Shown here: piece after piece, positions 15,359 to 49,282 of the stretch
Position numbering within the stretch: position 1 is the first letter of the stretch
How the letters are laid out: the number at the start of each line of letters is the position of its first letter
Source: Strobilurus pachycystidiatus
Lineage: Eukaryota; Basidiomycota; Agaricomycetes; Agaricales; Physalacriaceae
DNA length: 64,000 nucleotides
Reading direction: 5' to 3'
NCBI GenBank assembly: GCA_019915135.1
Contig: JAHLMK010000006.1
Span: forward strand, 310,001 to 374,000
Position numbers and translations under genes: made by a program
Notes under the pieces: model-generated
Told to the model about the DNA's origin: nothing
Seen by the model: the letters and a program-made list of their open reading frames with translations, nothing else
The model's database searches: none

Positions 15359-15541
15359 TGTAACGGATGTGGCGCTGTGCGCCACGTTTGTATGTTGTCA
15401 TTGTTTGGCGGGGCCTTCGGCCCCTTGTATTTATGTGACTATTCGTGACCGTAGACAGTAGTTGTCTTATATTGTGTATTGCTCGTAACTACCAATCGAC
15501 TTGGTCTAGTTACGACGCGTGAATACCGTGAGACCGTTACA
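15359..15541 (+). repeat. 5' LTR of the Ty3/Gypsy element
   Basis: 183 bp, TGTAACGG...CCGTTACA, with perfect 8-bp inverted ends. By eye it is identical to 49100-49282. Confidence 0.92.
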
Positions 15542-15603
15542 CTTTTTTAACTACCCGAGCAACTTGTTAGTTGCTCCAGCAATACCAGCAGCAAAATTGC
15601 ACA

Positions 15604-27100: not shown

Positions 27101-28274
27101 CCCCACTAAGCCCTGGGACTCTATAGGAATGGACTTCGTGGGACCATTCCCTGAGAGTAAAGGCTTTAACTATCTATGGGTGATAGTTTGTCGCATGACC
27201 AGTATGGTTCATCTCATACCGGTGCACACAAAAATGAAAGCATCTGAACTTTCATGGATTTACCGTCGAGAAATAGTACGGTTACACGGACTGCCTTCGT
27301 CCATTGTGTCCGACAGGGATTCCAAGTTCACATCAAAATGGTGGCGTGAACTTCACCGTATTATGGGCGCAAAGTTGTTGATGTCAACTTCGTTCCATCC
27401 GCAAACGGACGGATTAACGGAACGTATGAATCGCTCCGTTGGACAGATATTTAGGGCAGAAGTACGCCCTGACCAGAAAGACTGGGTTGATAGAATCGAT
27501 ATGACCGAATTTGCGATCAACGCCAGTATCAGTGAGACGACGAAATACGCGCCATTCGAGTTGAATGGAGGACATATGCCCTCCATGATTCGAGAAATCA
27601 AGCATAAAGGTGCTTGTGCTCCAGCGATCCGCACATTCGCGGAGAAGGCATTGCTGAATCTGGCGATCGCCCACGATAACATTATCGAAAAACGTGTATT
27701 CCAAACGTTTTACGCGAATAAGCATCGTAGTAATGAGGCGGTGATATCGACAGGTGACTTGGTGTATTTATCCACCAAGAACTTGAACTTGCCGAAAGGC
27801 AGAGCTAAGAAGCTCTGCCCGCGATTCGTCGGTCCATATAGAGTGAAAGACTGTTGGCCGGAGACGTCCAACTACACCCTTGAATTGCCGACAGCGTTGG
27901 CGGAACGTAGAATAAACCCTACATTCCACGTCAGCCTACTGCGACCGTTCTATTCGAACAACGATGCCCTGTTTCCGAATAGGGCTACGCCTGATCCATA
28001 CGACTTCGGCGCCCCAGATGACGCCGAGTGGTTTGTCGATGAACTGATCGGCCATCGTTGGGGAAATAACGGTCTGGAGTTTGAGGTACGGTGGAGTCTT
28101 GGTGACACCACCTGGGAAGTCCTGGCTGAAGTTAATAAACTTCAGGCCATGGACCGGTATTTGGAGCTACAGGGTGTGAATACACCCTCCAAGCTCGCGA
28201 AGAAAGAACGCGCGGGTGGTAATGACCACCCGATTCCAGTGCGGGGTAAGGGCAGAAGGCGGAAGAAAAGTTGA
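24117..28274 (+). CDS. pol: Ty3 Pol: reverse transcriptase, RNase H, integrase, chromodomain
   Basis: About 1,385 codons open from just after the UGA; the first internal ATG is at 24213. RT has LCIPKKDGHLR, SKIDLSDAYEQV and the catalytic YLDDIFVYS (near residue 486). RNase H has ICDASHTGVGAM and TDHRAL. Integrase has the HHCC zinc region (HNVLGHFG...CKSCKNCQ, about 935-978), the D of GMDFVGPF, the D of SDRDSKF and the E of GLTERMN. The C-terminus (about 1302-1352) is chromodomain-like (EWFVDELIGHRW...WEVLAEVNKL), which in chromoviruses guides integration to chromatin. No break was seen. Confidence 0.93.
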   Translation, partial: HGSRAPAVEEVEDEELHKVNSESLPANAPSILMSKLDFDEWSKTGIDPHPTQKRRAREPAKVHETSPTKPMEPARVLEPSLGNNKSTTEGHSSAANQPYCQPTSSKVRVEDLVTDDDDDNCRHTRQGINQPPIQERRQRRFWDRPIPKPTLAWPYDPRMPTEWNSVMGAMWDQSTAYAESETTEVSGTSGAASTRVYNHVRNEMEECVQTGPITIQSLCNHAGYSPSIDRFMAIKPEVGKDEALRSIERMVAMNEDRQTYKMKQGRISSPSPARTEPERRDKGKMKAPLSDNDIPSLRQRWMDEYANIMDGVPEEMPPFREINHEIPLVDSEKTYRYHLPRCPHSLRTELSDKIERYTRAGWWEEKTSPQAAPMLCIPKKDGHLRTVVDCRQRNDNTVKDVTPMPDQENIREDLARAKYRSKIDLSDAYEQVRVILKDIYKTAFATTFGTFVSHVMQQGDCNAPATFQRLMTAIFRKYIGRFMHVYLDDIFVYSDTIEEHEEHISIVLATLKEHHLYLKRSKCELYSARVDCLGHIIDDRGIHADADKLTKIREWRTPRNYHDIQRFVGMVNYLAMFLPDITSYTGPLMNMIHNGNVFNWRPLHQRCFDMVKHICCKTPILQPIHYKLDEPIWIICDASHTGVGAMYGQGPTWQTCRPAGFMSKKFSNAQQNYRVYEQETLAILEALMKWEDKLIGYPIHIITDHRALEFFQTQVNLTPRQTRWIDYLSKFSMDITYVKGEDNKVADCLSRYYENDTLDDVHPAHEYVAADTRLDPGGDDLPKDRRAEVDNNEVEIRAIHDAVLRRSRRIQEQKEIREIEAEEMAAAMPEPSVHSARVSHKTVHEGVVEPTLGDAINSSPSTEKIRMNDDAFMKNVQDAYVSDPLFSKIMAQPGDFSGFTVEDGYIWKKNLAGDEVLCIPKGEIDDQSLHGRIIEQAHNVLGHFGAQRTSEYVRRMYWWPRLTSQCQDFCKSCKNCQRSKGTNQPPPGKLHTLPIPTKPWDSIGMDFVGPFPESKGFNYLWVIVCRMTSMVHLIPVHTKMKASELSWIYRREIVRLHGLPSSIVSDRDSKFTSKWWRELHRIMGAKLLMSTSFHPQTDGLTERMNRSVGQIFRAEVRPDQKDWVDRIDMTEFAINASISETTKYAPFELNGGHMPSMIREIKHKGACAPAIRTFAEKALLNLAIAHDNIIEKRVFQTFYANKHRSNEAVISTGDLVYLSTKNLNLPKGRAKKLCPRFVGPYRVKDCWPETSNYTLELPTALAERRINPTFHVSLLRPFYSNNDALFPNRATPDPYDFGAPDDAEWFVDELIGHRWGNNGLEFEVRWSLGDTTWEVLAEVNKLQAMDRYLELQGVNTPSKLAKKERAGGNDHPIPVRGKGRRRKKS

Positions 28275-31200
28275 AGTCCCACTATTGGGCCCGAACCGAG
28301 GTCAAATCAGCCGGCTCGGCATTGCTGACTCACTGGGCCTTGGCCCTCACGTTATCTTTTCATCTCTTCCCTTTTTTCCACCATCACCACACCGTTCCCA
28401 CCGACATCTCCGACGTCGCGTTCTCAATAACGCGACATCATGTTCAAGCCCCGGAGCCATAGCTGTAATAAATAAGATATTACACAGGACAAGTAACGGA
28501 TAATGGTTGTTGTTATTGTAGGACAACTGACGGACCGCTGGGACCCAGGTAAATACTTATGTAATGCCCTCGTGGGTCCACGGGCACGTTGCAGGCGGCG
28601 CCCTGCGCTACAATACCCTGGGTTGCTTCTTAATTGGGACGAAACATTGGGGCCCATGGTTATTCCGCCTCATTGGGGATACAGCACTGCCGAATACATG
28701 CCGTAGCCATGCATCTGCATTCGGCCGGGATGCCGCCTCCGTTTTTGTCAGTCCGGATTTGGTACCATACGCGCGCGTCATCCTACATGTGGCGCAGGAT
28801 AATCAAACCGTCAGCGCACACGGTCTTTAGGATATTACGACACGATGAGTGTTTGCCATGCATGCAGCACGCCTTCATCCCGCATTCCATCGGCTGTTGT
28901 AGGGCCAGATCTCAGATCAGCAGCACGAGCGTATCACGTGCGAGTTGGACTTGGGCAAATCCTTAAACTGCCCAAGTCCGATCCATCAACGCCATCGCTC
29001 GTGATTGCTAATTCAGTGCGCCACCCACAACACACGCCCTTTTTATCCGCGCGCGCACGATGGAGACAGATCCAAGTCGCCGACTCGGAGGAGCAATTCT
29101 ATTCGGTTTACGGTACGTGGTCTTCCTAACTTTTACGTGACATCTTACATCCATCAATCAGCAGGGCTCCTACGACGTAAAGAGTCCAAGAGCCCTTTCA
29201 TTACCCACTGCACGTCAACCCTCGCCGCTTCCCATGCGTCCGAATTCAACGCATGCCGTTCGTTGTACGATCTCCACCAGGAAAGTACCGCCACCACACT
29301 GAGCAGACCATTCTTGCCGGGTACGTTCAGCCTCTCCCACCCATCACCGTACACCTCCCTCTTCCATTCGCCCGAATCGTCTCGCTCTCTCCAACGGCTT
29401 TGCAAATAGGCCCACCATTCCAACCACGACGAAACAAATGTGTCCGCATCTCTATCCGCCAACTCCAGGCGGATACCATTACGCGTTCTTCCTTGTTGAA
29501 TCCAAGTCGATACTAGTGTTGGGCGCAGGCAAACTCCCTGTAAACCTTTCGCCTCTCCTGCCTTCCAGCCATGCTCCTTTTCGATTTCCAGCAATAATCG
29601 CAGCGCCACCAAAAGGTTGTCCCCGCCAGGCGCTGCCATAAATTCTGTTACGGCCTCAACAATCCAAGGCGGCGCGACGCTCAGCAACTCGTGAATGCGG
29701 GCCTTCTCCACCTCCGATTCCACGTCTCCATTCGCGGCCCTGCCGTCAGCGTCTTTGCAGATTATGGGCGACGCGACGTCAGTCTGCGCCTGCTCCTCAT
29801 CCACCTCCATGGCATCCGTTCTCTCTACTCCGCTTGAAATCTCAGGTTGCGGCCCAATGTCCTTCTCCACATCGCCCCCTGTCCCAGCATCATTTTCCAA
29901 GTCTTTCAGCTCTTCCGCGCATGTTGGAGCAGGATCGGCGCCAGGATCGGCGCCAGGATCGGCGCCAGGATCGGCGCTTCTAGTCGCCATCCTGGTCGAC
30001 GCTGCCTGCTTTTTCGCCTTCGGGCGCACGCGTTTTGGCGACGCTGGTCGAGCCGGGTTGCGTATCGTTCCATCTCGGATCCCCTGCACGGCATGTTCGA
30101 AGAAGTCGTCTCCTTTCTTCCCCGTCGTCGGATACCCCATGTCCTGCATGTGGGAGAGCCCCGCCAATATCAGACTATTCCTCCATTTGTTTTCTTCCAT
30201 ACTTCTCTCGTACGCGCTCAGGCCCGGAGGGTGAACGGGTGGTTTCGGCGTCAAGTCGGCTGGCTCTGCGGGTGGAGTGATAGCGCGTCGCGCCTTCTTG
30301 ACTGTGCGACTTGTAGAATCATCGTCGGGCCCATCCTCCTCCTCGTCGTCGTCGTCGTCGGTCTTCTTCCGCCGCCTCTTGTTCTGCTTCGGATATTCGC
30401 CATCCAGTCTTTCGTCGCTCGGCTCCTCCTCCTCCCAGTCCTCGAAACTCTTCAGCTTCTCTAGGAGCGACTCATCGATGAATCTGTCCCTCTTCGCCAC
30501 CTCTCTCTCCAATACACCCTCAACCTTTTCCTCCCCGTCGCCGGCTTGTCCAGAGGTACCAGAGCCGGCGTCGACCACCGTCGACTTCTTCTCGTCGTCG
30601 GTATAACAAGTCGCCAACCATGCCTTGTAATCCACGATCAGGGCGTCCATTTTCGATTTGCCCAGCCACTCAGGAAAGGTTAGCGGAACGTCCGCTTTGT
30701 TCTTGCTTGTAGTAACGCTAACATCGCTCGTCAGGTCGCGATAATTGATCGTTACAGGAAAGATCACTCACTTAATCGTGCCGTATTCGCCGCCATACAC
30801 ATTCATTGGACCGCCCATCATAGTAAATACGCGACAGAAAGTTCGCTCTTCGATGCCGCGATTGATCTCTCCCACAAAGGCGTGTGTACGGGCGACGGCA
30901 CTAAATCCAGTATCAGCAAAAACAGTCATCTGCATATTCAACCGTACCTCGCTCTATCCTCAGCGCTCTTCGAGGGCGGCTCTGCCAATATTGCCTTGTA
31001 TGCCGCCTTCTCCTTATCTCCCCGCTCCTGGGCCTCCGCTGCCCATCGCTTCCTCTCATCCTCCGGCAGAATCTTGAATAGCTCACGGACAAAGTCTGTG
31101 CCCATGTTCACGGGAGTCTTTTTCGTACTCCCCCTCTTTGCAACCCACATTGCGTCCACCCTCTCGACCATTTTCGGCATCAGGAACGAGTAGCGCTCCC

Positions 31201-34200
31201 TCACCTCGCGGTCAACCGCCTCCAGTGTCGATGTCACAATATCTGTCCCGAAGTCCGGTGGCTTCTCATTCGCTGTCGACGCTTTGATCATCGTCCAGGC
31301 CTTATCGACCATCGTCGCGAGCATCAGTCCTTGGTCCCAATTTGCGCGTTGGAACATATGCGCCGCATGAGGTTGCCTGGGCGGTTTCTCAATGCCACAT
31401 ATCCGTGCCATCAAGATTGCGTATGTATCCGAGGGGTCGCGACGCGTCAATTCCGTGACACGAGAGCGAAGCTTCGCGGCCTGACGGACCAACCAACGAT
31501 GGAGACGCTGATTCGTCTCGTGAGTGCCGGCGCCTATTTTCACGCGACAAACATCACTCACCTCGTTCATTTCTAAGACGTGTGCTCCCTTCGCCGCCGC
31601 TTCTTCGTCGGTAAGGTCCTTGTCTTGGCTCAGAGGTGCTAGCGGGTCGTATTCCGGGAGCGTGTCAGGCTCGTCGTGGTCTTGCATTGGCCAGGGGAAG
31701 AGCGCATGATACATCGTCTGCAACTCCTTCAGCCTGATATCCGCCTGCTGCCATCCACGGTCCACCGCCTCGACGAAGCTCGGAATTGTCGGAAGAAAGA
31801 CCGACTCCCTCATGCCCTCCATCCATCCAATATTATTCCTTCTATCCTTCTTATCAATCTTCTTGTAAGTGCTTCTCCTGCCCTTCTTCTTCCCCGAGTG
31901 AGACTGAGGTTTCGTCATAGGCAATTTGTGAGCGAGCGAGTGTCGACTTTCGAGGATATGTCGCAAAGAGGGACCGCTTCGTCAAGGGACGGAAGAGAGA
32001 CTTTTGCGCCGCGGACCCGATTCGTCCGCTGTCCGGGACGCTGGGCCTACCATTTCCCGGCAGAGTCGATGAATTTCAATTCAGCAACCACGAGGTCAGA
32101 CTCTATATCTACTGCAACACGTCAGTAATTTGTCCTTCCCATCCATCTTTGCCTCCCGCATCCACCTTCATCTAGAATACTCCCTCGCTCCACTATGTCT
32201 GCTCAAGAAGGCTGCTTTGCTGGCGGCGCCGTCGCTTCGCCAGCAGAGTTGTCCGTCACCGAGCGCCACTCGGATCTCGGCAAGAATGTCGCGCACGTCG
32301 AGGCGGGTGAGAGTGAGCACGTCGTTTATATTAGCTTCCCTCATTGACTTCATCTTCTCAGCCGCCTCTCCCCCGCCTTATCCCGCCTCTTTCTGTCCCC
32401 CCGGTTTCCCGGTTCAGTGTGTATACGATCCGCTCATCGCGCTCGAGGACTACGTCGACGAGTCGGTCGCCAATCGTGCTGGAGTTTTGTTCCAGAAGGT
32501 GCCATCCGGACCCCTCAAGCCTGCTCTCATTCCAGCCCATGCCGACGGGTCCAAAACTTTCTTTTATGTGATCACCGTTGGCCTCAAAGTCGGCATTGTG
32601 ACGGACGCGTAGGTTTTCAATCTGATCTTATCATTGCCCTCACTGATAAGACTTCTTTGTTAGTGCCATCGCCGCGGCTCACGTCAACGGTGTGTCTGGG
32701 GCATTTTCGAAGAAGCGTCACAGCCAGTCCGCTGCGCTCCAGTATTTCAATGAAGACTTGGCTGCCGGCAAAGTCAAGATTGGGTCCCTGCGCCGTTCCA
32801 GCCGTCCCCAGTAAGTACCGTTCCCTGTCGTTGACGCCGTTCACTCATTCGTCCAGAGTTCTGTGTGGCGGGTTCTGCATTGTCGCTTAGACTGGGCACT
32901 TCTTACCGCGCTACTAAGCCACAGTCCCCACGGTATATCTTACGATGTCGTTTGTCAGTATCATTACAACGTCTCGGGCTCTGATTCCGTCTGCCTTACT
33001 TAGTCTTGTAGTATAAATATCAAATAGCACATCGTTTCGCGGCACGCACCACCTAGATGGTTTCTACCACCACCACCACCATGCGAGACATCGTTATCGT
33101 GCTGTCATCAGATGAGGAGGACAATTCCTCGCCTGTACATGCTCCTCGGTCTGTCACGCGAGACGCCTCTAGGCTTCCTACTCGTCGTGTCCCAGTATCT
33201 ACACCCGTCCAGCGACAACCCGAGGACGGCGTCGACGATGACCTCGAGGCACTCATTGGCGGCCTTGATAATCTCTCTGTTGTTCCTCGTGCTGGTCGCA
33301 ATCTTTACTCCATAGGTCAGGGCACTAATTCCAGAATCACGACGCATTGGTAATTAGAGTTCTCTGCACATTCTCTAGCTTATGCTTTGCAGGTCTGAAG
33401 CTGGAATGTCCCAGAACATGTCTGGGGAGTAGGGTTTTAAAGTTGAGTTGAGTTGGGTTTTTTGACTTCTTTTGTGAACAACCTCAACCCAACTGGTTGT
33501 CAAAACTCATAATTTTCCAATAACCTCAACCTCAACCTGGTTGTTTTCAACTCTTCACAACCTCAAAAAACCCTCAAAAACCGGTTACAACCTCAACTTT
33601 ACTTGTTTATGTCTCTTTTTTACTCAAAACATATAAATTTTCCATTGAGAATGTTACTTCTCAATGATTTACAATTGTACCTAGAGCTTAACAGTCTCAT
33701 ATCACCTTAAATACACATTATATAAGTATTAAAATGACACAAGTTGTTGAAGGTTGTTGAAAGTTACACCTTCAGTAAAAACCTACAACCCAACCCAAGT
33801 TGAGGTTGTTGAATTTAGTTAAATTTTCAACAACCTCAACCTGAGTTGGGTTGGGTTGTTTAAACAACCCGGTTGTTGCAACTCAACTTTAAAACCCTAC
33901 TGGGGAGCACATCCAGCGACTCTCTCCTCGCAAGTCGCGGACCAAGCGTCGTGCTGCAGCCTACGTCGCCTTTGTGGCCCTCACACCAGGGGTTTACGGC
34001 ACATGGTGATCTTTCTATCAGTTTCACCTGTCTCTGCCGTTGATCCATCCAACCCTCCAGGGCTGCCTGCCAAGGCGTGGTCAGCGGACAAAGTGGCGCC
34101 ATCTACCAAGCCTACACCACCATCTCCGCCGCGTCGCGTGCCTTCGCTTATGCTCGCGAGAAGGGATTAGTCCGGAGTACCTCCCTCACACAGGACATCC

Positions 34201-37200
34201 AGCAGTACAGACAGGAACGCGAGCGTTCTGATGCCGAGGCTGTTCTGTGGGACGTCAACACGCCGTTGAGCACAGACCTTGCGCGGCAAAGCTGGTACGT
34301 TGTTTACGTGGGTACGAAGCCCGGTATCTATCGAACGTTGTAAGTGCCTCATTCATTTGTTGGTTCAGAATGATTACTAACCAACACCTTTGACAGCATT
34401 GAAAGCGCTTTTTACCATGTTGGGATGCCCGGGGACTTACACGACAGTTACCCGACTTATGCTACTGCTGCAGAGGAATATACCCTGGCTTGTAGGGAAC
34501 GCCGTGTCATAAAACTAGTACCGATTTAAATTACTCCCCAGTCTTGCATTACCTGTAGAATAAATGTACGTGCGTGATCACGATTGCCTGTATATCGCCT
34601 CGCGTCGCGCCTGCGCAAATCGTGTTGTATTCGAATCAGGTACCTACTCGATTCACCAATCTACGTCCTTTGCCGCGCGCTTACATCTCAGTCTCCCGTG
34701 AATGTTCTCGACACTCACGACTCCCTCCTCGTACTTCTCACGTAGCTCCGCAATGGCCGCGAAGAGACATTCGCACCGACGAGTGACGGTGTCTCGCAGG
34801 ATTGTCACCACCTCGCCCTCTCCCAGAATCTCCACGATCTGCCGCTGCAGGCAAGTAGCCTTCCCGGAGACCATGTCTAGTGTAGCGCGCGCCTCCTGCA
34901 AGTGGCCGAGCGCTGCCTCCCTGTCATGGAGGTGATCCAAGACAAATCTAAGCCGATCGTTGACCCACAGAAACAGACTCCCGTTTGTCTTCTCTTGAAG
35001 CTTCGTCTCGAGGCGTGCAATCCTTCGCCGAAAATTCCGCACGGCTACCTTTTCCGGGATCCTGAGGATGTCGTATAATATGAATCAGCCTTGACGATAG
35101 AAGTCGAGAGCATCCGTACTCACGAGGCGTCGTATTCCTCCTGATTTTCATATCTAGCCAGGCGTGCGGCCTTCGTACGTCCATCCAACCGAGTAGGGTC
35201 TTGTTTGGCTCGGTAGTGCATTCTTTGCTGGGCGTTCAGTCGTTTTTTGTTGCTAGAATAGCTCTACTTAGCTCATGCAATACCGGCTTTGCATGGTACG
35301 TACCGGTCCCGATATCTAGCCTTGCTCTCTCTGCGAGCCTCCAAACGATCATCCTCGGTGACATACTTCGGTCGGCCAGCCATGTGGAAAAATTGTGAGA
35401 CGCAGCCGAAATGATAGTGGTGGAAAGATGTAAAGATGACTGTGATCGCAACGCGTCGTTGCGATCACAAATGTCATTGCGATCTTCGCCTCAAGTCAAC
35501 AGTTTCCGTAGACCGTCATGCAGCGCACGGCCGTCGGGCATGAGTTTGGCCCCCAATATTCGACTCTACGCCATAGCACATAGAATACCGTATTTCTATT
35601 TGGCAATCATGTACTGGATGTCGAGAAGAAATCAATATCAATGTTGTCACCAGGCAGCAGTTTCCGGAGACCGAGATGCACTATACTTCCGTTCTGTCTT
35701 CTTGCCGCTCCAGCAAAAAGGCGGAATGCCAAGAGACCATAAATCGGATTGAGAACATATAAAAATCAGGCTGTGAATTGCGAGATAAATCACGAATGGT
35801 CCCGTATATTATCAGGCGACCAAGATGGCAAGCTAGGCGACGAGCGAGAAGGGCCGTCTGTTCTCACCAAGTTGCGTGCTCACGCTGTTATTTCGACCGC
35901 GGTGGTGTAGTGGTCGAGCATGCGGTGGAGATCCCATCGAGGCCCGGGTTCGAATCCCGGCCTGTGGTCATACCATCTCACTAGTGAATTTTTGAATCTC
36001 ATTCTTTTCTCTCGGCGCTCGCTTGACGCTCGTCGCTCACTGCCCTCAGCTCTTGGATCCAAGTTTAATTATTTTCATTTTGACAACGTTAGACATGATC
36101 ACGAGTGTCTATTCGGATGTATCCGACATCCGAACCACGAATATGTGCACCTCAAACCCAGATATTTGTATTCGGATGGATATCCGACATTGCATCCGGG
36201 ATAATTGTCCAATATCCGAATATTTGTGAATATTCATCCGAATATATCCGAATATATCTGAATATCCATGAGTATTGGCATAATATTGCATCAAGAGCAG
36301 CCTGAAACCATACCTACTATGAAGTTATGGTATTACACTGTGTGTAAAATGTCAATTAGAGTCACATAGCTAACACAGAACACTCATATACTACAGCCCA
36401 CACTATCATGTCTCGGATGTCTGCTCAGAAAGTGGACATCCGACATCCGAGAGGCATCCGACATCCGAGAGGTATCCGACATCCGACATCCGAATATCTT
36501 CGGATGTCGAATACAAATATAATTGGAATATCCGAAAATATCCGACATTCGTGCTCATGTCTAGACAACGTGACGCTCGCGCCAGATTTGCTTTGCTCTG
36601 CGCTGAGTCAGACTGGCGTCTATAGAATAGTCGAGTTTCCTTTTTGGGCTCCTTGCATTTGAACCAACTTCCACCATGCCGACATACGATGTGTTGCAGC
36701 CTGGCCTTTACGCGCCAATCCCCAGCCTTGATCCTTCAGAGTACGATACTATATCTCTCACTGTACACCATTCTCACACCATTCTCAGAAATATCTGGCC
36801 CTTGCCTGTCTTTCGCCTCGCTCCGCGCGGTTTTCGCCTCGCCCCCTCTGAGACTAGTCCGTACGTGTTTCTTTGATAGGACAGCCCTTTTATGTGAAGT
36901 AACTCTGCTGGCACAGTACCCGTCTTGAGGCTTTCGTCCGGCGCCGGGAAGTTTTTTGCTGGAATTACTACGCCGAATTTGACGCAGGACGTGGCGGGCT
37001 GTGTCCCCAGGAATACACTAAGGTCCTCGTGGAATATTGCATGACTCATCCAAAAGACGCCTGCGCTCTTATCACCCAGGTTCACATCAAAGTGTCCATG
37101 CTCATCATCGACGCTGCGAAAGATTTGATCCACCTCCAGGATTTCTGCACGCGCTACCCCGCCTATACTTCGCGATTTGACGCGTTGAATCAAGGCATCG

Positions 37201-40200: not shown

Positions 40201-43200
40201 TACGGTCGATGACAATTATACACGACAATGGCATTCACAGCGTGCGCTTTCGATACTGTGCATGTTTCGCAGCCAGCGGGCAGCACAACTGGCAGCAGCT
40301 CTTGCGATGTGGCTGGTATCCGGGAACAACCCACACACCCCAGACCTGTGCGACCGTCGACGTGCTGAACCTTTACCGACGTCTCAAGGTCATGGCCACT
40401 GTGAACGTTCGGGATTTTGTTAGTGTCCTGGAAGCTATGTCAGATCCCTATGGCGTGGAGCGCGTACCCGACCGCTACAAGGCCTTTTTACGGATGTCTC
40501 GTCAATGGGCGTTTCTCAAACGCGTGCGGCGGTCTGGAGTGTTATACGAGGAGGGAGGACTCGAGGACGCGCCTGATGGGGCAATCGCTGTGAAATGCTG
40601 GGCCTGTCCGCGCCTGGGAGTCAATTTACCAGACGGCTGGGAGAGGGTGGGCGCGGAGCACAGGTATGTGCCGATCTCTTGTTCCCTTTTTCAAGGTGCG
40701 CAGTTGACATTGAATTAGATACATGTATCGGCAGACTCTTTCGGCGGACGCAAACTTCAAGATGACTTGCAAGATGCGCGCCTCCCCTTACGTGGATCTT
40801 CCTCTCTATTCTGGGCTTGGAGTTCAGATGCCGCTGGAGCAGTACCACGCGTGGCTGAGAAGCTACGTTACTGAGGAGGAGGTAAGTTTATCATTTGTTT
40901 GCTGATTCATTTCAGTGTTGACTGATACTTGGACTATTTCCACAGGTCTCCAGCTGTATCGCTTTCGCAGCCCTGATGCAAAAGGATACACGCTTCTCCG
41001 TGGGGTTGCGCTGGGCGGGTGTGTTGAGAGTCATCTGCGCACGGCACGAAATTTTAATGGGCCTAGGGGATCTCGAAAAGGGTGAACGGTAAGCAGCGCT
41101 CTTTCAAAAGCAAGCGTCTTCGTAATTGACAGGGTTTCAGGTATAAGAACACCGATTTCGTGCTCTACTGGCTACTGAGCCGCATGGGCCTCAAAGAGGT
41201 CACGATAACTTACGACATTGCGTGCCAGTACCGAAAACATTTTCATGAACGCATCGAAGCACTCCCCGAATGCCTCAAACAACTGGATTTACCGGACATC
41301 ACATGGGGTTTGCCGGTCTGGCACGGTAATGTGCACAATATCGAGTGCGAGACGGCCGAGTCTCTCAAGTACCAGCCTGGTGTCGGCAAGACCGACGGAG
41401 AGGGGATCGAGCGGGTGTGGTCCGTGCTCAACCCCATGTCATACATGACCAAGGAAGAACAGCCCGGTGCACGACACGATGACATCGAGGATAAGGCGGA
41501 CCAGCATAACTTCACCAAGAATATCAACTTAGGTACGTCATCGAGACGTGGCGCTACCATCAGCTGATAGTTTCACAGGACAAACATTGTTGCGTCGACT
41601 TCGCATTGCCCTCGCCGAGCGCGTCGTTCAGTCTGAGAGCTTTGCGCAGGTGAATGCGTCTTTGGAGGATGATTTGCGCAATGATTGGGAGCGCATGGTC
41701 GACGATTGGTTGGAGGATCGAACAAAGCCAAACCCCTACGCGCCCTCCGGTAACGGTATTACTATTCTCATTTTCTATATTGATATTGTTTTTAACTGTC
41801 TCATACAGTGTCAATCACTGAGGAACAAGTTCGCTTACGGCTGCGCCAAGAGGAGGCGGAGGAGGAGAAGAGAGAGCGGGATGAGGCGGAGAAAGCAAGT
41901 CAAGCCAACTTGTCGGAGGACGAGAGTTCAGAGAGCGAGGAGGAACGGACTACCCGATCGAAGGGTGCAGCACGCCAGAAAAAAGCAGCAGCAAATCGGA
42001 AACCGTTGCCGGCGGAACCTGCGAAAGTCAGCATGGCCGGATTTGTTATTTTGGGTCTACAAGTCGAGTACGATCAGTAAGTGGCTCTGCATTAGTGATA
42101 TCTGTCCTCTGACATTGCCATAGGCGACGAATACAACACGACAAGATCAAGAGTCCGAAAATGACGACGGACGCTCAAAGCAAGCTTATTCAACGCCGCC
42201 GAACGCTCTCCCACAAATTGAAGCAGTTTCGCAAATGCCGGGTTATTGACGTTATCGAACGAGACGAGTCGTCCCGCCGCAGCAAGGAATCCCCGTCGGT
42301 GCAGCCGGAGGACGAAAAGCTCTATTTGCCCTCCGCTTGTGCAGCATCTGCTTTGCTGCAAGCCGAAGTCCACTGTCGACGGAAACTGATGGGATACGAG
42401 TCGGATCTTCGACGGGCGCAATGCACCGACGCTTTGGGCAAAATTCGCGGCAGGCTGATTGCCAAGCGGTATCTGGTCAATTATCGGAACGCCCACGTAA
42501 CCGGACAGCGCGACACAACCCGTGCTGCCACATTGATACACTCGATCAGCGCAAAGGTAGAGCAGGCCGCCGACAAATATCGTGCTGCTCGAGCGCGACT
42601 GGTAGAGCTTGATGGTGAGGAAGGGTGTGGCAGCTTAAAGGAGCTGCTGCCGGGTGACGTGAAGGTCTATGTCACGGCCGAATCAGATGCGGAAGCCGTC
42701 AAGAAGTTGGGACGACTGGAAGGGCGAGACAGTAGGATCACGGCAACGGGGCGGAAGAAGGTGGATCTTCGCAGGCGGGACGTTGCGGGAGAGGGCAAGG
42801 CCACCATGTCCTGGATCTGGACAGCAGATGGCGGTCCAGAGGCGGACAAAGACGAGTATGTCCATGAATGTGAGTTTTTCGTACAGATTCATCCCATGTA
42901 AACTGAGTAATTGGTTCTTGGTCAGGTGTTCGGATCGAGTGGGCGCGCGCTCTGGCTCGTAAAACGCGTTGGACGGAAGAAGTGGAGATTCTCAAGGAGG
43001 AAATGCGGCGCGTCTTGCGCTCTTTGACTTGGGAGGAGAAGGAGTGGAGGAACCGAAGTGAGCGTGGAGGGTCTTGGCTGCGGGTCGAGGAGCTGATAGG
43101 TCGCCGTGCTTACGCCGTGCAGCAGGCAAAGAATCGGGTGGAGGTGCGAGAGTCCTTTGAGGCTCTGTGGCGCAGGGCGGAGCCTACGCGTGGGCAGAGA

Positions 43201-46200
43201 GCCGGTCCGATGGATAGATTGGCTCATCGGACCGCATCACAGATTGTTGATGGGATGACGGATACTTGAAGGTCTGCCGAACGAGCCGTGGGGTTTCTCG
43301 AGTGCCGGACGGGTTATTACTACTATTCCATTGCCAATATAATATAAATTTCACATATTGCTACTTTCGGACAGTGTCGGGACGTTGAGCGCGAGTCGGG
43401 GGAGCACCTAGCACGTGTTCTGCAATGACTCAGCCGTCCCGCATACCTAGGACAGTAGCTGGACAGTATCCGTCAGTTGACGGGTACCGTCAACTGACAG
43501 CGGAATATCCTAAAGCAAACTACGTCAACTGACGGATGAGACCTTATTTCCTACAGCTACAGGTGAGCCCCGGGCCCCGGATCAGAATCCGTCGAGGAAT
43601 TCTGGAGGGGGGGACAGGCGCAACGAGCGCAACAACAACGACGACAGGCGGCGCAACGACGACCGACGAGACGACGAGTCCCACTCGTTCAGAGGCGGCC
43701 GCGGCGGACCACACCGTAGAGGAGGTTCTGCACCTCCTCACCGGGGTCAAGGTCCGCCCCAATACAACCGAACTGGCTACATGGCTGCCCCACTGGGATC
43801 CTCATCCCGCAGCCAATCGAAAAATGTCGCGGGCACAACCCGATTCGACAACAACCCCGCACCGCGTCCCTCAAGTTCACGCGGAGCGATCCAAAACGTG
43901 GCAGGACCATCCCGCCATGCCCAAGTCAATTAGTGACCTTCACGAGTCTCGAGGGTCCCTCGAGTACTCGAGACTCGACTCGCCTCGGGAACCCCCGAGA
44001 CTCAGACACGCGGGACTCGTGAATCTTGCTGACTCGAGTCCATAACGAGTCACGGGCAGCGCATTGGTGATGTGAGTACTCATTGCGAGTACTCACTGGG
44101 ACTCGCAAAGGCGTCAATGCTCAACGGCGCCCTCAGAGTGTGTCTAAACACTCCGCACGCATTGTTAATGAACTAAACAGATCACAATCCCTCGGGATCA
44201 ATACTCTGATCCGAGTGATCGTGATCGACCTTGTACCTCTCTTCCTCCCACCACCACCGGGCTTGACGATCCGTCAACCCTGCCAGTCTGACAAGTTGTC
44301 AGCTGGCTTGGACAACATCTAGATGCCCTACAAGAGGGCCAGGACGACATTCGACCACCGTTGCTAGGGCGTCGCGGCCTTAGCAACGGGATAACGACAA
44401 CGCGTAGGCCCCCCGCAAAAGGGCAGCATGCAACGGACAACAGTGACGACAGCCCTCAATAGGCCATAAACCGACGGGCGGCACTCTGCCCTGCCAATGT
44501 GCTGGTCTCCAGAGCGGATGCGGCGGGATGAGGGCGCGCGGCGCGTCTGCAGACGACGCCGCACATTAAGGTGCCAGATCCAATCATCTTGATGGCGTCT
44601 CTGCTCACTGACTTGGATCTAGATATAACTATGCACTGTTTGCTGCTTGCGCCCTCCCCGCTCAGCAAAACCATCTCCCGCCAATTGTCATCTTGACACG
44701 ACCCTCCCGTTGCTCACCACCACCCTCTGCCTCACCACTACACTCTGGCGCCTTCCACTACCCTTCACCTCACCTCACTTCCCTCCTCGCACCCTCCCCA
44801 CACCCCCTTGTACACCCTCATGCTCGGCTGAGGCCCCCTGTGCACTTGCTTGGGGGGATTCGTCGGGCATGAACCTAACTGTGCGAGTATTCACTAGAGT
44901 ACTTGCGAGTACTCACCGGGACTCGAGTTACAAACGAGTACTCATCCGACTCGTGAGTACTCGACTCGTTGGACTCGAGTCTTTGTAGCATGAGTCTTTC
45001 CACGAGTCGCGGGCACGGCTTTGGGCCGTGAGTACTCATGTTCACGAGTCCGAGTCTACTCGAGTCAAGACTCGTGAAGGTCTCTAAAGTCAATAGGTTC
45101 GCTCCTATTGACACTGACGTCGACATGGATGCTCGCGAAACATCCACCTCGACACGATCAACAGCGGACAAGGGGAAAGGGAAAATGTTCGCCGCCGACG
45201 AGGAGAAAATGCAGCGCGCCGGAGAAGAGGAACGCATCGAGGCCAAACGACAGGCCATCGAAGCCGAACCATTCCCCGAAGAGGTGCTGCGCGACCCGGA
45301 CTTCCGTTCGTTCGCCATGGGCGCGTACGAGGAATACAAGCGGCAGAAGGAGAAGAGTCTTGCAGAGGAAGAGGTATGGTCCTTAGAAAGGTCCGTACGC
45401 GAGACGGAACTAAAGTTGGAGGAGCAATGGCGACTGCTGTCGCATGCTCAGGATAAGCTGCAGAAGCGAATCCATTCTCCCGACGCGTCAGAACCGTCTA
45501 AGCGCCAGAAGTCTGACGCTAGATCGGACGTCTCCTCGGTATCCCGAAACATCCCACAACGAGACACCACCGACTCGTCGTACGCTGGTCGGGTTAGGAG
45601 CATGCCCCAACCCTCCAGCAGTAGCACGCGTAGCGTGACTGGGCCACAAACCCAGTTCATACAACCTCGACAATCATCGATGATGTCTTCATCATCCCCG
45701 ATGTCCAACGTCTCGTCCACGGAAGCGGCTCAAGTTCCGCTTCGCCCACACCGAGCAGGGCTGGTGTTTGACATGCCATCAGTGGACTACCGAAAGCCGC
45801 CGCCGGATGCAGTACCTCTGCCCAAAGGTTGTCCAAGCATGGTCAAACGGTTTGAGGATGAAGATATCCCCGACCATTCGCGATACGCGGATGAATTCAT
45901 CCGCCGTGGCAAAATCAGCCACGATCGCCTTCACGCTCTGACTCTCCCCAGCAAGCCGTGCCCTACCGAGGCGGATGTTCGGCGGGCTCTGGCTAATGGA
46001 GATCGAGTTATGGGGGGAGTAATTCTTCCCTGCGCTAACTCGGATGACGAGGACGGCTGGAATGACGACGAGGAAGAGCTGCCAGGTGAGAGGCATGGAT
46101 GGCATTACGCCGAGATCGAGGCTGATGATAGCCCCGAAGTTCGGCGTAAGAAGAAGTTGCAGAATGAGTCCCTCGACCAGATGGCTCGAGACTTCTACAC

Positions 46201-49045
46201 TCGAGCGATCAACGATTGGAGAGATCAACCGGGACGCATACCGGAAGGGCTGGGTGTGTGGACACACAAGATCACCCAGCACTCTGCACGGGATAATAAC
46301 TTCGGGGGAATGCTACCTCCCGGGGCTTATTACGACCCCGATTTCAACACGGTGTACATCGGTGACCTGGCTCAGGAATGCATCGACACTCATATGCGTG
46401 GGTTGCAGTTCATCCCCAATAAGAGGAAGAAGTGGCCATGGGGAAGTGGATTCCCCATGACGCCCTACGAGTTAGAGAAGGGCGAGGCGATCATTGCCAG
46501 GAAGAAAGAACGGTGGCAGGAGGTATTCATACTCCTGCACATGTTTTGCCGTGTCGCCAGCGGCATACATCGTGCCCTTTGGGATTGGACGATGTGGGAG
46601 GCGGATGCGATGATGGCTCGCCATCCCGAGTGGGATGATCATTATTCGCTCATTCCACCCCACTTGGATCTACCGAGTTATATGATCGAGGGTGGTAGCG
46701 TGGTGAACCTCCCTCATCCAAGTGACTCCGCATCCCTCGATGAATTCTGCGCATTTGCTGGATTCTATTGGGCACCGGGTTGTCGTCAAACCGTTGTCGG
46801 TTTGATCATGAACCGATGCCATCATGTGTACGTGGCGAGCATGTTTGCTCACCTCGTAGCGCGTTTTACCGCGCCACTCGCGAAGAAGGTTGGCGATAAT
46901 CAGCGGAATATCTATGTCCGTACGCTCCAAGCGATCGCCTTCATACCCGGGCGGTTCACCTCATTGGTGAAACGTTGGAATAGGGAACACGGGGCGGACA
47001 TGCAGCTCGAGCCAGCCCCATGGTCGCCAAGGTTGGGTCGCTTCCCAACCATGGTAAACGCGAATTTGGATGAGATGGACGTCGTCAAACATCTCATGCA
47101 TTGTGGCCTACGGGCGGAGCATGTGGATAGTATGTATCCTTGGGCGGTCCAGTGGGCGTCTCATCACCGAGGCAGTAATGTCTTCATCGACGCCCGCCTG
47201 AAGGAGCTGGATCGTGAACGCCTCACTGTGTTGAACGAGCGTGGCCCTCCCGCCATCATGCCTGAATATGATGGGTGGTATGTACCCACCGAGGCGGCTG
47301 AGCGACGTATTCGTTGCCTCATAGATAGAGACCTTCACGAGTCTTGACTCGAGTAGACTCGGACTCGTGAACATGAGTACTCACGGCCCAAAGCCGTGCC
47401 CGCGACTCGTGGAAAGACTCATGCTACAAAGACTCGAGTCCAACGAGTCGAGTACTCACGAGTCGGATGAGTACTCGTTTGTAACTCGAGTCCCGGTGAG
47501 TACTCGCAAGTACTCTAGTGAATACTCGCACAGTTAGGTTCATGCCCGACGAATCCCCCCAAGCAAGTGCACAGGGGGCCTCAGCCGAGCATGAGGGTGT
47601 ACAAGGGGGTGTGGGGAGGGTGCGAGGAGGGAAGTGAGGTGAGGTGAAGGGTAGTGGAAGGCGCCAGAGTGTAGTGGTGAGGCAGAGGGTGGTGGTGAGC
47701 AACGGGAGGGTCGTGTCAAGATGACAATTGGCGGGAGATGGTTTTGCTGAGCGGGGAGGGCGCAAGCAGCAAACAGTGCATAGTTATATCTAGATCCAAG
47801 TCAGTGAGCAGAGACGCCATCAAGATGATTGGATCTGGCACCTTAATGTGCGGCGTCGTCTGCAGACGCGCCGCGCGCCCTCATCCCGCCGCATCCGCTC
47901 TGGAGACCAGCACATTGGCAGGGCAGAGTGCCGCCCGTCGGTTTATGGCCTATTGAGGGCTGTCGTCACTGTTGTCCGTTGCATGCTGCCCTTTTGCGGG
48001 GGGCCTACGCGTTGTCGTTATCCCGTTGCTAAGGCCGCGACGCCCTAGCAACGGTGGTCGAATGTCGTCCTGGCCCTCTTGTAGGGCATCCAGATGTTGT
48101 CCAAGCCAGCTGACAACTTGTCAGACTGGCAGGGTTGACGGATCGTCAAGCCCGGTGGTGGTGGGAGGAAGAGAGGTACAAGGTCGATCACGATCACTCG
48201 GATCAGAGTATTGATCCCGAGGGATTGTGATCTGTTTAGTTCATTAACAATGCGTGCGGAGTGTTTAGACACACTCTGAGGGCGCCGTTGAGCATTGACG
48301 CCTTTGCGAGTCCCAGTGAGTACTCGCAATGAGTACTCACATCACCAATGCGCTGCCCGTGACTCGTTATGGACTCGAGTCAGCAAGATTCACGAGTCCC
48401 GCGTGTCTGAGTCTCGGGGGTTCCCGAGGCGAGTCGAGTCTCGAGTACTCGAGGGACCCTCGAGACTCGTGAAGGTCACTACTCATAGAGAAGGAGCTCG
48501 ATGAGCCGGAACCTGTCAATAGGTTCAGCAGCGAGAACTGGTTCTTGGTAGGGGATTCGCCTATCCGAGATCGGATATCCCCTCCTCAGACGCGTGGTGA
48601 ACAACCGAATGCTAATTCGGAAGTACCAGTGGTTTTGGCCCAGGTCGGGTCATCGGCTGTCGATACGGTGATGTCTCAACCACAGACAGATCCGCCAATC
48701 GTCGACGCTGATATGGAGGACGGTCAGATATTGTCAGAGGGTGCCCAAAACACCCTCACCGACGATGGAAGGACTGCTACCGTGATTGAGGGTACCCAAA
48801 ATACCCTGGATCCCGGTGTGGTCGCGCCCGTGCCCATGGTCGTCGAATCCGACACCACCACCCCAGTACCGCCGCCCGTCGAGGTCGCCGTTCCTATGGA
48901 GACCCTTGTTATCGTCGATCCGAGCCAGCCCTCTATTCCTTCACCAGTGGCGTCATCCGAGGAACCAGTAGCCCCGGTCGAAGCGGTTGATGTACCGCTT
49001 CCACCGTCACCGTCCACCTCTCCCACCGAAACCCCCGCTTCTTGA
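28222..49045 (+). CDS. Third ORF of the Ty3 element, unknown protein (split by three insertions)
   Basis: Segments 28222..28464, 43559..43930, 45095..47325 and 48490..49045 give one continuous frame of 1,133 aa once the KDZ element and two MITEs are removed with one TSD copy each. It overlaps the end of Pol in another frame; the exact start is uncertain. Order: an RG/RGG-rich stretch (SFRGGRGGPHRRGG), a charged coiled coil (about 225-330), a Ser-rich linker, a folded-looking region of about 400 aa with Trp and Cys (MFCRVASGIHRALWDWTMWE), and a Pro/Val/Thr-rich acidic tail. No signal peptide, membrane segment or known domain was recognised. The position resembles that of env in retroviruses, but nothing else supports that. 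Confidence 0.7.
28465..29153. other. Left end of the KDZ element, no gene supported
   Basis: Terminal region with CAACTGACGG at about 28,525. A very short plus-strand frame from the ATG at 29060 has a plausible donor (GTACGT), but its extension soon hits a stop, so it is not called. Confidence 0.45.
29154..31918 (-). CDS. KDZ cargo gene A, 887-aa conserved-looking protein
   Basis: The model is complement(29154..30717, 30772..30900, 30948..31918). Introns of 54 and 47 nt keep the frame; an optional 45-nt intron near 31,521-31,565 would also keep it. The start (MTKPQSHSGKKKGRR) is basic. Domain 1 has ALFPWPMQDHDEPDTLPEYD, a segment I associate from memory with agaricomycete proteins found beside KDZ elements. 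A middle part (MNVYGGEYGTINVTTSKNK) precedes an acidic/basic low-complexity region with a (GADP) repeat. The C-terminus has WLEWWAYLQSRWRERDD and VNVPGKNGLLSV-like segments (RLNVPGKNGLLSVVAVLSWW). Function is unknown; a DNA- or chromatin-related role in transposition is only a guess. Confidence 0.75.
32195..32890 (+). CDS. KDZ cargo gene B: RNase H1 N-terminal (viroplasmin-like) domain protein
   Basis: The model is join(32195..32312, 32362..32608, 32664..32810, 32857..32890), 181 aa, with introns of 46-55 nt. Around residues 105-160 it has FFYVITVGLKVGIVTDA and AHVNGVSGAFSKKRHSQSAA. These match the pattern of the small domain that binds RNA:DNA hybrids or dsRNA in RNase H1 and in caulimovirus viroplasmin. 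There is no RNase H catalytic domain. Nucleic-acid binding is therefore likely; the role in the transposon is unknown. Confidence 0.75.
33057..34529 (+). pseudogene. KDZ cargo gene C: two viroplasmin-like domains, broken by a MITE
   Basis: Exons are 33057..33349, 33393..33429 with 33908..34005, 34061..34339 and 34397..34529. Without the MITE (33430-33907 including one TSD copy) the frame gives 279 aa. The N-terminus carries a probable SUMO-interacting motif (DIVIVLSSDEED, hydrophobic core then acidic). Two RNase H1 N-terminal-type domains follow: AYVAFVALTPGVYGTW...VVSGQSGAIYQAY and SWYVVYVGTKPGIYRTF. The inserted MITE begins with TAG directly in frame after SGE, so the present gene stops before both domains unless the MITE is spliced out. 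Confidence 0.72.
33430..33899. mobile_element. hAT-like MITE inside cargo gene C
   Basis: 470 bp, AT-rich, with inverted ends TAGGGTTTTAAAGTTGAGTT and its exact reverse complement. The 8-bp TSD is CTGGGGAG (33422-33429, 33900-33907). The inside is rich in GTTGAGGTTG/CAACCTCAACC repeats. No coding capacity. Confidence 0.9.
34653..35383 (-). CDS. KDZ cargo gene D: small basic coiled-coil protein
   Basis: The model is complement(34653..35061, 35124..35252, 35304..35383), 205 aa, with introns of 62 and 51 nt that keep the frame. The N-terminal 70 residues are highly basic and helical (EDDRLEARRESKARYRDRNK, then QQRMHYRAKQD), followed by a coiled coil (RRRIARLETKLQEK) and helices rich in Leu. It resembles a basic region-coil layout of DNA-binding proteins, but no bZIP or HMG signature is certain. 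It is divergent in orientation from genes B and C. Confidence 0.65.
35384..35894. other. Intergenic within the KDZ element
   Basis: A segment CAGTTTCCG(T/G)AGACCG occurs twice (about 35,500 and 35,650). No gene was supported. Confidence 0.4.
35895..35970 (+). tRNA. tRNA-like sequence, possibly a pseudogene or SINE head
   Basis: It has a good A box (TGGTGTAGTGG) and B box (GGTTCGAATCC). An acceptor stem ACCGCGG/CTGTGGT, a D stem and an anticodon stem (CGGTG/CATCG) can be drawn. The anticodon loop would read GAGATCC, which lacks the usual T at position 33, and there is one extra base between T and acceptor stems. A functional tRNA is therefore doubtful. Confidence 0.4.
36090..36563. mobile_element. 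hAT-like MITE with CATCCGA repeats
   Basis: 474 bp with inverted ends TAGACATGATCACGAGTGTC and TAGACATGAGCACGAATGTC. The 8-bp TSD is GACAACGT (36082-36089, 36564-36571). The inside is filled with ATCCGACATCCGA and ATATCCGAATA repeats. No coding capacity. Confidence 0.88.
36676..37346 (+). CDS. KDZ cargo gene E, unknown 204-aa protein
   Basis: The model is join(36676..36860, 36917..37346), with a 56-nt intron (GTACGT...GGCACAG). It starts MPTYDVLQPGLYAPIPSLDP. The second exon is a mainly helical region (REVFCWNYYAEFDAGRGGLC, then VHIKVSMLIIDAAKDLIHLQ). No known domain was recognised. It may be a distant relative of the next two genes, which share size, intron style and a helical C-terminal half, but similarity is weak. 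Confidence 0.6.
37562..38210 (+). CDS. KDZ cargo gene F, unknown 179-aa protein
   Basis: The model is join(37562..37731, 37784..37860, 37918..38210). The second intron is 57 nt (GTAAGT...TTCACAG) and would stay in frame if retained. The N-terminal 60 residues are basic and Pro/Ala/Lys-rich (SSPKKKPAPAAPRRPTAK), like a disordered nuclear tail. The C-terminal helical domain has RFLEMGIYTHADMVALCI and FKTGLEIQAEPWREMKHALY. The same layout (helix, G-I-x-T, helix, L-x-I, W..MK..L) is found in gene G, so the two are likely paralogues. Confidence 0.65.
38338..39135 (+). CDS. KDZ cargo gene G, unknown 230-aa protein
   Basis: The model is join(38338..38441, 38496..38809, 38861..39135), with introns of 54 and 51 nt. 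The core has ARFLACDITTIGDLRAIL and LGIRVGSGNWTMMKRFLARY, parallel to the end of gene F. The third exon is basic then acidic (HQRRRDRIQRFKSEAND, ending PPPGYVDLDS). No known domain was recognised. It ends 202 bp before the transposase start and may share its regulation. Confidence 0.65.
39338..43269 (+). CDS. KDZ transposase with CxC-type cysteine cluster
   Basis: Ten exons: join(39338..39703, 39754..40044, 40098..40663, 40719..40881, 40946..41088, 41141..41532, 41579..41749, 41809..42076, 42124..42869, 42926..43269), 1,149 aa with every junction in frame. The Cys cluster (CCSCGVALH; CRTCGDFLECEGCCLKRHER) is at about residues 154-210. The DDE core shows D in SADANFKMT (about 417), D in ITYDIACQY (about 533) and E in KTDGEGIERVW (about 595), followed by HDDIEDKADQHNF. 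The C-terminal half is coiled and charged and ends with the usual EWARALARKTRWTEEVEILK. It should cut and rejoin element ends. It appears intact. Confidence 0.9.
43270..43554. repeat. Right end of the KDZ element with subterminal repeats
   Basis: Several direct and inverted copies of GTCAACTGACGG lie between 43,470 and 43,540; one copy (CAACTGACGG) lies near the left end at about 28,525. Such motifs are candidate transposase-binding sites. The terminus is CTTATTTCCTAC before AGCT. Confidence 0.6.
43931..45086. mobile_element. hAT-like MITE, 1,156 bp (copy 1)
   Basis: Ends TAGTGACCTTCACGAG and, inverted, TAGAGACCTTCACGAG. The 8-bp TSD is AAGTCAAT (43923-43930, 45087-45094). Both ends carry arrays of GAGTACTC/GACTCGAG motifs. 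Frames on either strand inside are mirrored in copy 2 and carry no known domain. It interrupts the third ORF of the Ty3 element. Confidence 0.9.
47326..48481. mobile_element. hAT-like MITE, 1,156 bp (copy 2, inverted)
   Basis: Same element as 43931-45086 in opposite orientation, with its own 8-bp TSD CTCATAGA (47318-47325, 48482-48489). Separate TSDs show two independent insertions rather than one foldback element. Confidence 0.9.
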
Positions 49046-49099
49046 ATTTGCTGTACACTTAGCATGTTTTGATACCTTGGACGCTATCATGAGGGGGTG

Positions 49100-49282
49100 T
49101 GTAACGGATGTGGCGCTGTGCGCCACGTTTGTATGTTGTCATTGTTTGGCGGGGCCTTCGGCCCCTTGTATTTATGTGACTATTCGTGACCGTAGACAGT
49201 AGTTGTCTTATATTGTGTATTGCTCGTAACTACCAATCGACTTGGTCTAGTTACGACGCGTGAATACCGTGAGACCGTTACA
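49100..49282 (+). repeat. 3' LTR of the Ty3/Gypsy element
   Basis: 183 bp, the same sequence as 15359-15541, followed by ATACA, which matches the five bases before the 5' LTR. It is preceded by the purine run ATGAGGGGGTG. Confidence 0.92.

What the first reader, a model, noticed from the sequence alone, without database searches (positions are those of the whole stretch)
28222..49045. Ty3 element with a large unknown third ORF after pol
Four separated segments rejoin into a single 1,133-codon frame when three independent insertions are removed with one TSD copy each. That continuity is unlikely by chance. The product has an RGG-rich part, a coiled coil and a conserved-looking Trp/Cys-rich region, with no signal or membrane segment. 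Extra ORFs downstream of pol in fungal chromoviruses are uncommon, and this one matches nothing I know.
Basis: partly seen in the sequence, partly recalled or inferred. Interest (0 to 1): 0.85.

Follow-up and report, generated by a model that had tools for sequence, protein, structure and literature searches.

The report
Conserved unknown third gene in retrotransposon
A family of fungal jumping genes related to yeast Ty3 carries, after its two standard genes, a third conserved gene that matched no known protein family and may help the element handle its own RNA.

Summary
Window 15359-49282 is one Ty3/gypsy element with identical 183-bp LTRs and a 5-bp target duplication. Between pol and the 3' LTR lies an ORF3 broken by a 15.1-kb TIR insert and two copies of a 1,156-bp hAT-like MITE.

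The decisive evidence is in other copies in the same genome. ORF3, open or decayed, follows pol in 15 of 15 examined loci of this pol group (16 listed) and is one open frame of 707-1,111 aa in 8 of them. It is absent from 8 of 8 examined more distant elements. Its core is under purifying selection (dN/dS 0.06-0.08 in the best pair).

ORF3 has no clear membrane segment, no detectable Gag homology, and no credible match in Pfam, NCBIfam, PHROGs, PADLOC, the PDB or a 5.8-billion-protein search in which pol found 3,504 relatives. TATAAA boxes before ORF3 in some families hint at its own promoter.

Best guess: a nuclear RNA-binding accessory protein, working like CERV of Cer1; this is inferred. A 2010 survey already marks an unexplained additional ORF in its figure of full-length elements, so this is a new variant of a known kind.

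The parts
15359..15541 (+). 5' LTR, 183 bp
   Evidence: Identical to the 3' LTR; outer flank ATACA
15604..15979 (+). 5' part of ORF1 (gag), cut by an LTR-type insert
   Evidence: ATG 15604 read; insert starts at 15980
15980..20434 (.). Nested LTR-type insert in gag, direct repeats of about 0.85 kb, flanked by TCATC
20435..24116 (+). Rest of ORF1: Gag with CCHC knuckle and protease-like region, ends in UGA
   Evidence: Pfam zf-CCHC E 3e-5; aspartyl protease E 0.009, below its cut-off
24117..28274 (+). ORF2 (pol): RT, RNase H, integrase, chromo-like C-terminus, in the frame of ORF1 after one UGA
   Evidence: Pfam; Chromo E 0.0048, below its cut-off
28440..28461 (+). Likely 5' end of ORF3, ATG 28440
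   Evidence: Frame reading with a TA duplication; inferred
28462..43559 (.). 15.1-kb insert with terminal inverted repeats, TA (or CA) at both sides
   Evidence: ends single copy
43560..43930 (+). ORF3 segment 2: R/G/N-rich N-terminal part
43931..45086 (+). hAT-like MITE, copy 1, duplication AAGTCAAT
45087..47325 (+). ORF3 segment 3: charged, probably coiled-coil stretch and conserved core
   Evidence: Homologues
47326..48481 (-). hAT-like MITE, copy 2, opposite orientation, duplication CTCATAGA
48482..49045 (+). ORF3 segment 4: acidic, Pro/Ser/Thr-rich tail and stop
49091..49099 (+). Polypurine tract before the 3' LTR
   Evidence: G-rich run before the LTR in window, C21, C9a and C20
49100..49282 (+). 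3' LTR, 183 bp
   Evidence: Identical to the 5' LTR; outer flank ATACA

Best explanation
ORF3 is a genuine accessory gene of a group of fungal Ty3/gypsy elements, kept by selection. Shown: its place between pol and the 3' LTR, homology among families, purifying selection, and absence from the more distant elements examined. Inferred: it is made from its own short mRNA that starts at an internal promoter just after pol, and gives a soluble protein. The disordered, Arg-rich or RG-rich front binds the element's RNA, the charged helical stretch lets it multimerise, and the conserved core binds a host or element partner. Its likely job is to protect or export the genomic RNA or to lead it to Gag, as CERV does for Cer1 of C. 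elegans.
For: ORF3 in 15 of 15 examined loci, 8 with one unbroken frame. Core dN/dS 0.06-0.08 against 0.036 in pol of the same pair. Lowest identity at third codon positions, window against C21: 0.46/0.54/0.30. TATAAA between pol stop and ORF3 ATG in 3 of 6 families (Markov P 0.0006) against one in 27.6 kb of gag-pol of four elements. RG motifs above all 500 shuffles in C9a and C4 (2.70 Mb), weaker in window and C21; a bipartite-NLS-like motif at matching places in window and C21. No membrane-like stretch in 11 of 11 sequences.
Against: No RNA or protein data. The TATA test was made after seeing the sequences, C8 and C1 are related, and window, C21, C9b and C13b lack TATAAA. Five sequences (C13b, C8, C1, C3, C9a) have no bipartite-NLS-like motif, and RG enrichment also occurs in one of three Gags (C9a, 2 of 500 shuffles), so it is not special to ORF3. 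Subgroup B lacks RG enrichment. No known RNA-binding domain was found. The single-sequence model is unusable.
Confidence: 0.4

Rival explanations
1. ORF3 is a counter-defence protein: it binds or blocks the host's silencing machinery (RNA interference or DNA methylation) so that the element stays expressed.
For: Fast-evolving N-terminus and conserved core (dN/dS 0.25-0.32 against 0.06-0.08); orphan status; accessory genes of mobile elements often act against host defence (general knowledge).
Against: Nothing in the sequence points to a silencing factor; no PADLOC match (a library of anti-phage systems, so weak evidence). The strongly conserved core is unlike many arms-race proteins.
Confidence: 0.25
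2. ORF3 is a second structural protein of the particle, a partner of Gag or a nucleocapsid-like protein.
For: Large, R/G-rich, with a charged helical stretch; encoded only in these elements so far as searched.
Against: No Gag homology by profile comparison (probability 0.1 both times); Gag here already has a CCHC knuckle.
Confidence: 0.2
3. ORF3 is an envelope-like or membrane protein that lets the element leave the cell.
For: Its position is that of env in retroviruses and of the env-like ORFs of plant elements (PMC7264820, section 4).
Against: No candidate membrane segment in 11 of 11 sequences (highest Kyte-Doolittle mean 1.59).
Confidence: 0.05
4. ORF3 is a host gene captured lately by one element, or a chance open frame.
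For: Captured genes in LTR elements are known (bdelloid rotifers, PMC5408684, abstract).
Against: Present at 15 loci in three sequence subgroups, under selection. Own-genome searches with four ORF3s returned places in elements of this group, plus one weak 178-residue match on C10 (E 7e-4, five stops inside) that I did not look into.
Confidence: 0.05

Closest known systems
Additional ORF with unknown function in full-length fungal Gypsy elements (PMC2864245, Figure 3 legend; section 5 and passages seen, figure not held)
   Same: An additional ORF of unknown function in LTR elements of that survey (25 fungal species; Figure 3 also shows one spikemoss element); elements up to more than 13 kb.
   Different: The text I saw gives neither the clade, place, sequence nor conservation of that ORF. 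Whether it is this ORF3 family is open.
Sense additional ORFs between pol and 3' LTR of plant elements, often called env-like (PMC7264820, abstract and sections 4 and 8)
   Same: Place and orientation; present in most copies of a family.
   Different: No candidate membrane segment here; no sequence comparison with them was made.
CERV of Cer1, a C. elegans LTR retrotransposon (PMC10309623, passages)
   Same: Works-like model: an orphan accessory protein with a possible leucine zipper, nuclear, needed for export of genomic RNA.
   Different: CERV is 517 aa, from a spliced 5-exon mRNA whose first exons share the gag frame; ORF3 here is a separate frame after pol. No homology is claimed, and no comparison was made.
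ORF3s of bdelloid rotifer LTR elements (PMC5408684, abstract) and sORF2 of Drosophila MDG1-group elements (PMC11952523, abstract)
   Same: Accessory ORFs beyond gag and pol.
   Different: Those are enzymes, fusion proteins or a short transmembrane protein; ORF3 here matches no Pfam enzyme family and has no candidate membrane segment.
Antisense additional ORFs of Retand elements with a TRP28 domain (PMC11963269, passages)
   Same: Extra coding region between pol and 3' LTR, proposed regulatory role.
   Different: Opposite strand; elements that are not chromoviruses; no Pfam match here.

Membership tests
Ty3/gypsy LTR retrotransposon | Paired LTRs with a short target duplication | tested here: met
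   183-bp identical LTRs, 5-bp ATACA
Ty3/gypsy LTR retrotransposon | RT and RNase H before integrase | tested here: met
   Pfam order RVT_1, RT_RNaseH, H2C2, rve
Chromovirus | Chromodomain at the end of pol | tested here: inconclusive
   Chromo E 0.0048, 17.2 bits against a cut-off of 25.1 in the window; none in C9b; two 65-66% identical pol proteins pass narrowly at 25.3 and 25.4 bits
Sense additional ORF between pol and 3' LTR | Same strand as pol, in that place, in most or all copies | tested here: met
   15 of 15 examined loci; the 3' LTR was located for window, C21, C13 (102 kb), C9a and C20 only
Env-like protein | Membrane segment | tested here: not met
   No 19-residue mean of 1.6 or more in 11 of 11 sequences
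Gag duplicate | Homology to Gag | tested here: not met
   hhalign probability 0.1 for both subgroups
CERV/Rev-like RNA export factor | Nuclear, binds element RNA, needed for its export | not testable with these tools
   Only NLS-like and RG motifs in some families
Separately transcribed accessory gene | Internal promoter or spliced mRNA | tested here: inconclusive
   TATAAA in 3 of 6 families, P 0.0006, after the fact; absent from window, C21, C9b. Intron-like signals in C9a and C20 no denser than in pol

The most novel reading that the evidence does not exclude
A whole group of fungal Ty3/gypsy elements has an orphan gene with its own internal promoter, whose nuclear RNA-binding product controls export or fate of the element's genomic RNA: a fungal counterpart, by convergence, of Rev, CERV or the internally promoted genes of foamy viruses (Rev and foamy viruses recalled).
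Probability: 0.25. Interest if true: 0.78.

Novelty: new variant of a known kind. Interest (0 to 1): 0.55.

Why it matters
gag and pol are usually held to be enough for an intracellular retrotransposon. Here a lineage keeps a gene of 700-1,100 codons, roughly a fifth to a quarter of the element, under strong selection and without a relative found outside these elements. Identical LTRs in several copies suggest recent activity. If the gene handles genomic RNA, fungi would offer a new case of a problem known from retroviruses and Cer1; if it blocks silencing, it opens a view on fungal genome defence.

Tried and rejected
Protein searches with ORF3 segment 3 and with an 8-row ORF3 alignment gave no hit at E<=0.01 among 7,992 and 7,993 scored candidates. 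The word filter limits their reach, but the same database gave 3,504 hits at E<=1e-50 for pol (best 120 listed). Pfam, NCBIfam, PHROGs, PADLOC: nothing credible; the weak ones were NUFIP2 in segment 4 (E 0.016, 14.5 bits against a cut-off of 27), DUF2252 (0.36), NADH-G_4Fe-4S_3 (0.23) and two PHROGs (0.15, 0.39). PDB by sequence or profile: best E 0.18. IMG/VR scans with pol and with an ORF3 profile: 5 and 28 pattern matches, none confirmed. AlphaFold of 403 residues alone: pLDDT 34.5, so no fold search was made. I did not submit own-genome relatives for folding, because the tool's stated list does not name loci of the genome search. Gag origin rejected. RS dipeptides in C9b and C13b: not above shuffles. 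Intron signals in ORF3 of C9a and C20: suggestive only. Literature: nine searches of open PMC texts; seven papers opened. Of these only PMC2864245 was seen to mark an additional ORF in a figure of mainly fungal Gypsy elements. I do not claim that this ORF3 family is unpublished; subscription papers and Repbase were not searched.

Full report
What is in the window. A basidiomycete host of the Agaricomycetes is inferred from the pol relatives that carry a name (Mycena, Phanerochaete, Phlebia, Trametes). The element runs from LTR 15359-15541 to LTR 49100-49282. The LTRs are identical and flanked by ATACA. ORF1 and ORF2 share one frame, parted by a single UGA. Four inserts lie inside: an LTR-type insert in gag (15980-20434), a 15.1-kb TIR insert, and two copies of a 1,156-bp MITE.

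Check of the ORF. Each MITE with its 8-bp duplication is 1,164 nt (0 mod 3), so segments 43560-43930, 45087-47325 and 48482-49045 share one frame. The MITE ends are firm: five end-to-end copies at 99-100% identity. The ends of the 15.1-kb insert are single copy. Its duplication reads as CA (15,102 nt) or TA (15,098 nt, counted by hand). TA leads to ATG 28440, 165 nt after the pol stop codon; CA leads to a frame without ATG; neither leads to the frame of 28222 (three frames printed). Segment 3 aligns to residues 199-977 of an unbroken relative at E 7e-65. Segments 2 and 4 fall before and after that, but weakly (scores 57 and 66).

Relatives in the genome. Segment 3 found an unbroken 1,111-aa frame at three places (30-31% identity, E 5e-60 twice and 1e-58) and two weaker relatives. 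Their surroundings show elements with LTRs: C21 (LTR 162 bp, 100%; gag frame 1,284 aa; pol 1,427; ORF3 1,111), C13 near 102 kb (LTR 160 bp, 99.4%; gag 1,396; pol in two overlapping frames; ORF3 1,111), C9 near 1.08 Mb, here C9a (LTR 298 bp, 100%; 1,111, 1,368 and 716 aa), and C20 (LTR 192 bp, 100%; 1,120, 1,397, ORF3 in two overlapping frames of 270 and 348). In C21 the gag and pol frames are parted by about 0.4 kb, unlike in the other copies, and a 129-column inverted match lies there, so its gag seems damaged.

How general it is. A pol search listed 68 matches, a lower bound (43 of 400 candidates scored). Merging split copies by hand, 16 loci have pol at 54% identity or more. I read the stretch after pol in 15 of 16, and ORF3 is there in 15 of 15: one open frame in 8 (C21, C13 102 kb, C4 405 kb, C9a, C9 1.89 Mb = C9b, C13 1.25 Mb = C13b, C8, C13 1.23 Mb = C13c), cut by inserts in 1 (window), damaged in 6 (C20, C1, C3, C32, C19, C4 2.70 Mb). 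The copy at C20 566 kb, which matches only the first half of the query, was not read. The loci are not independent: C21, C13 102 kb and C4 405 kb share one ORF3, and C8 and C13c are 99.6% identical.

Homology among the ORF3s. Subgroup A (window, C21, C9a, C20, C19) and subgroup B (C9b, C13b, C8, C13c, C1, C3, C32) meet at hhalign probability 85, E 6e-6 over 124 columns. The ORF of C4 2.70 Mb joins A at probability 89, E 2e-6 and is found by both profiles (E 3e-5 and 9e-4).

More distant elements. Eight elements were read after pol: C18, C17, C12, C9 1.75 Mb and C8 838 kb, C29, C4 3.01 Mb, C3 1.66 Mb; integrase identity 31-43% (for seven, for the eighth). Profiles of subgroups A and B found nothing in them at E<=10, and found all 12 group loci given, in a search of 786 ORFs of 50 aa or more from these 20 loci. 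Six of the 12 had supplied rows to the profiles, so only the other six are a test. In the four nearer elements pol runs on about 300-330 residues past the chromo-like part. One distant element has an open frame of 376 aa about 1.8 kb beyond pol, without a profile match. In a tree of 37 integrase rows the seven distant rows separate from the rest (support 93/95; 94% of 200 bootstrap trees); one of them has a very long branch. The ORF3 elements are not an exclusive clade (3 changes): database pol proteins of unknown surroundings lie among them; I used 20 of the 120 listed.

Selection. C9b against C13b, ORF3: 836 codons, Ka 0.146, Ks 0.754, ratio 0.19; by residues 0-200 0.32, 200-400 0.25, 400-600 0.06, 600-760 0.08, last 81 codons 0.72. 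pol of this pair 0.036; gag pieces 0.08 and 0.26. C1-C3: 0.058 (456 codons) and 0.135 (134). C8-C32: 0.286 (120), 0.083 (435), 0.133 (133) and 0.744 (30 codons). C19-C20: Ks not defined, two pieces. Ks is near 2 in two of these, hence saturated, and several copies are decayed. For window and C21, identity at codon positions is 0.46/0.54/0.30 in ORF3 and 0.75/0.86/0.39 in pol.

Expression. Between pol stop and ORF3 ATG, TATAAA occurs in C9a (67 nt before ATG), C8 (103) and C1 (86) out of six families tested (expected 0.19, P 0.0006, 20,000 Markov sequences each). C3 has it too and C4 2.70 Mb has TATAAG, both outside the test; C13b, a near relative of C9b, was left out of the test. Window, C21, C9b and C13b lack it. 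gag-pol stretches of four elements hold one TATAAA in 27.6 kb. I saw the motif before I tested it, C8 and C1 are related, and the C9a start depends on an assumed short intron. Intron-like signals are no denser in ORF3 of C9a and C20 than in pol. An internal promoter is thus suggested, not shown.

What kind of protein. RG motifs exceed all 500 shuffles in C9a and C4 2.70 Mb and are weakly raised in window segment 2 and C21 (27 and 31 of 500); one Gag of three (C9a) is raised too (2 of 500). Bipartite-NLS-like motifs: one each in window and C21 at matching places (32 and 50 of 500), two in C9b (2 of 500), none in the other ORF3 rows or in the four Gag and pol controls. No membrane-like stretch, no Gag homology, no credible family match, no PDB relative, no database relative although pol has thousands, no usable model.

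Verdict. That ORF3 is a real, selected gene of this group I hold near certain. That it is a separately expressed nuclear RNA-binding accessory protein is my best guess (0.4). Counter-defence (0.25) and a particle protein (0.2) stay open. Compared works: CERV (PMC10309623, passages), plant additional ORFs (PMC7264820, abstract and sections 4 and 8), Retand (PMC11963269, passages), rotifer ORF3s (PMC5408684, abstract), sORF2 (PMC11952523, abstract), fungal Gypsy surveys (PMC2864245, section 5 and passages; PMC3248453, passages).

Noticed in passing
24114-24116, and the same junction in C9a, C20, C13 (102 kb), C13b, C9b: gag and pol are parted by one in-frame UGA followed by C in 6 of 6 elements read (UGA CUA in three), the context known (recalled) for stop-codon readthrough. 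The C21 junction is rearranged and was not counted.
   Followed up: partly
15980-20434: Nested LTR-type insert with direct repeats of about 0.85 kb and no RT-bearing frame seen; it holds open frames at 17412-18322 that may be a carried gene.
   Followed up: no
28462-43559: 15.1-kb single-copy TIR insert with minus-strand frames of 537 and 347 aa that have no Pfam match and a tRNA-Ile-like hit at 35897-35969.
   Followed up: no
43931-45086 and 47326-48481: A 1,156-bp hAT-like MITE with five end-to-end copies at 99-100% identity in the genome and many 69-81% relatives of its ends.
   Followed up: partly
50962-56852: Ty1/copia element with 249-bp identical repeats and a single 1,733-aa frame.
   Followed up: no
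L034/L021 against L035/L022: Synonymous distance between C9b and C13b varies along the element (gag 0.09 and 0.31, pol 0.43, ORF3 0.75, ORF3 tail 0.15), which suggests recombination.
   Followed up: no
15539-15560 and the same place in C21, C9a, C20: A T-rich run follows the 5' LTR where a tRNA primer site would be expected; no primer site was obvious by eye.
   Followed up: no
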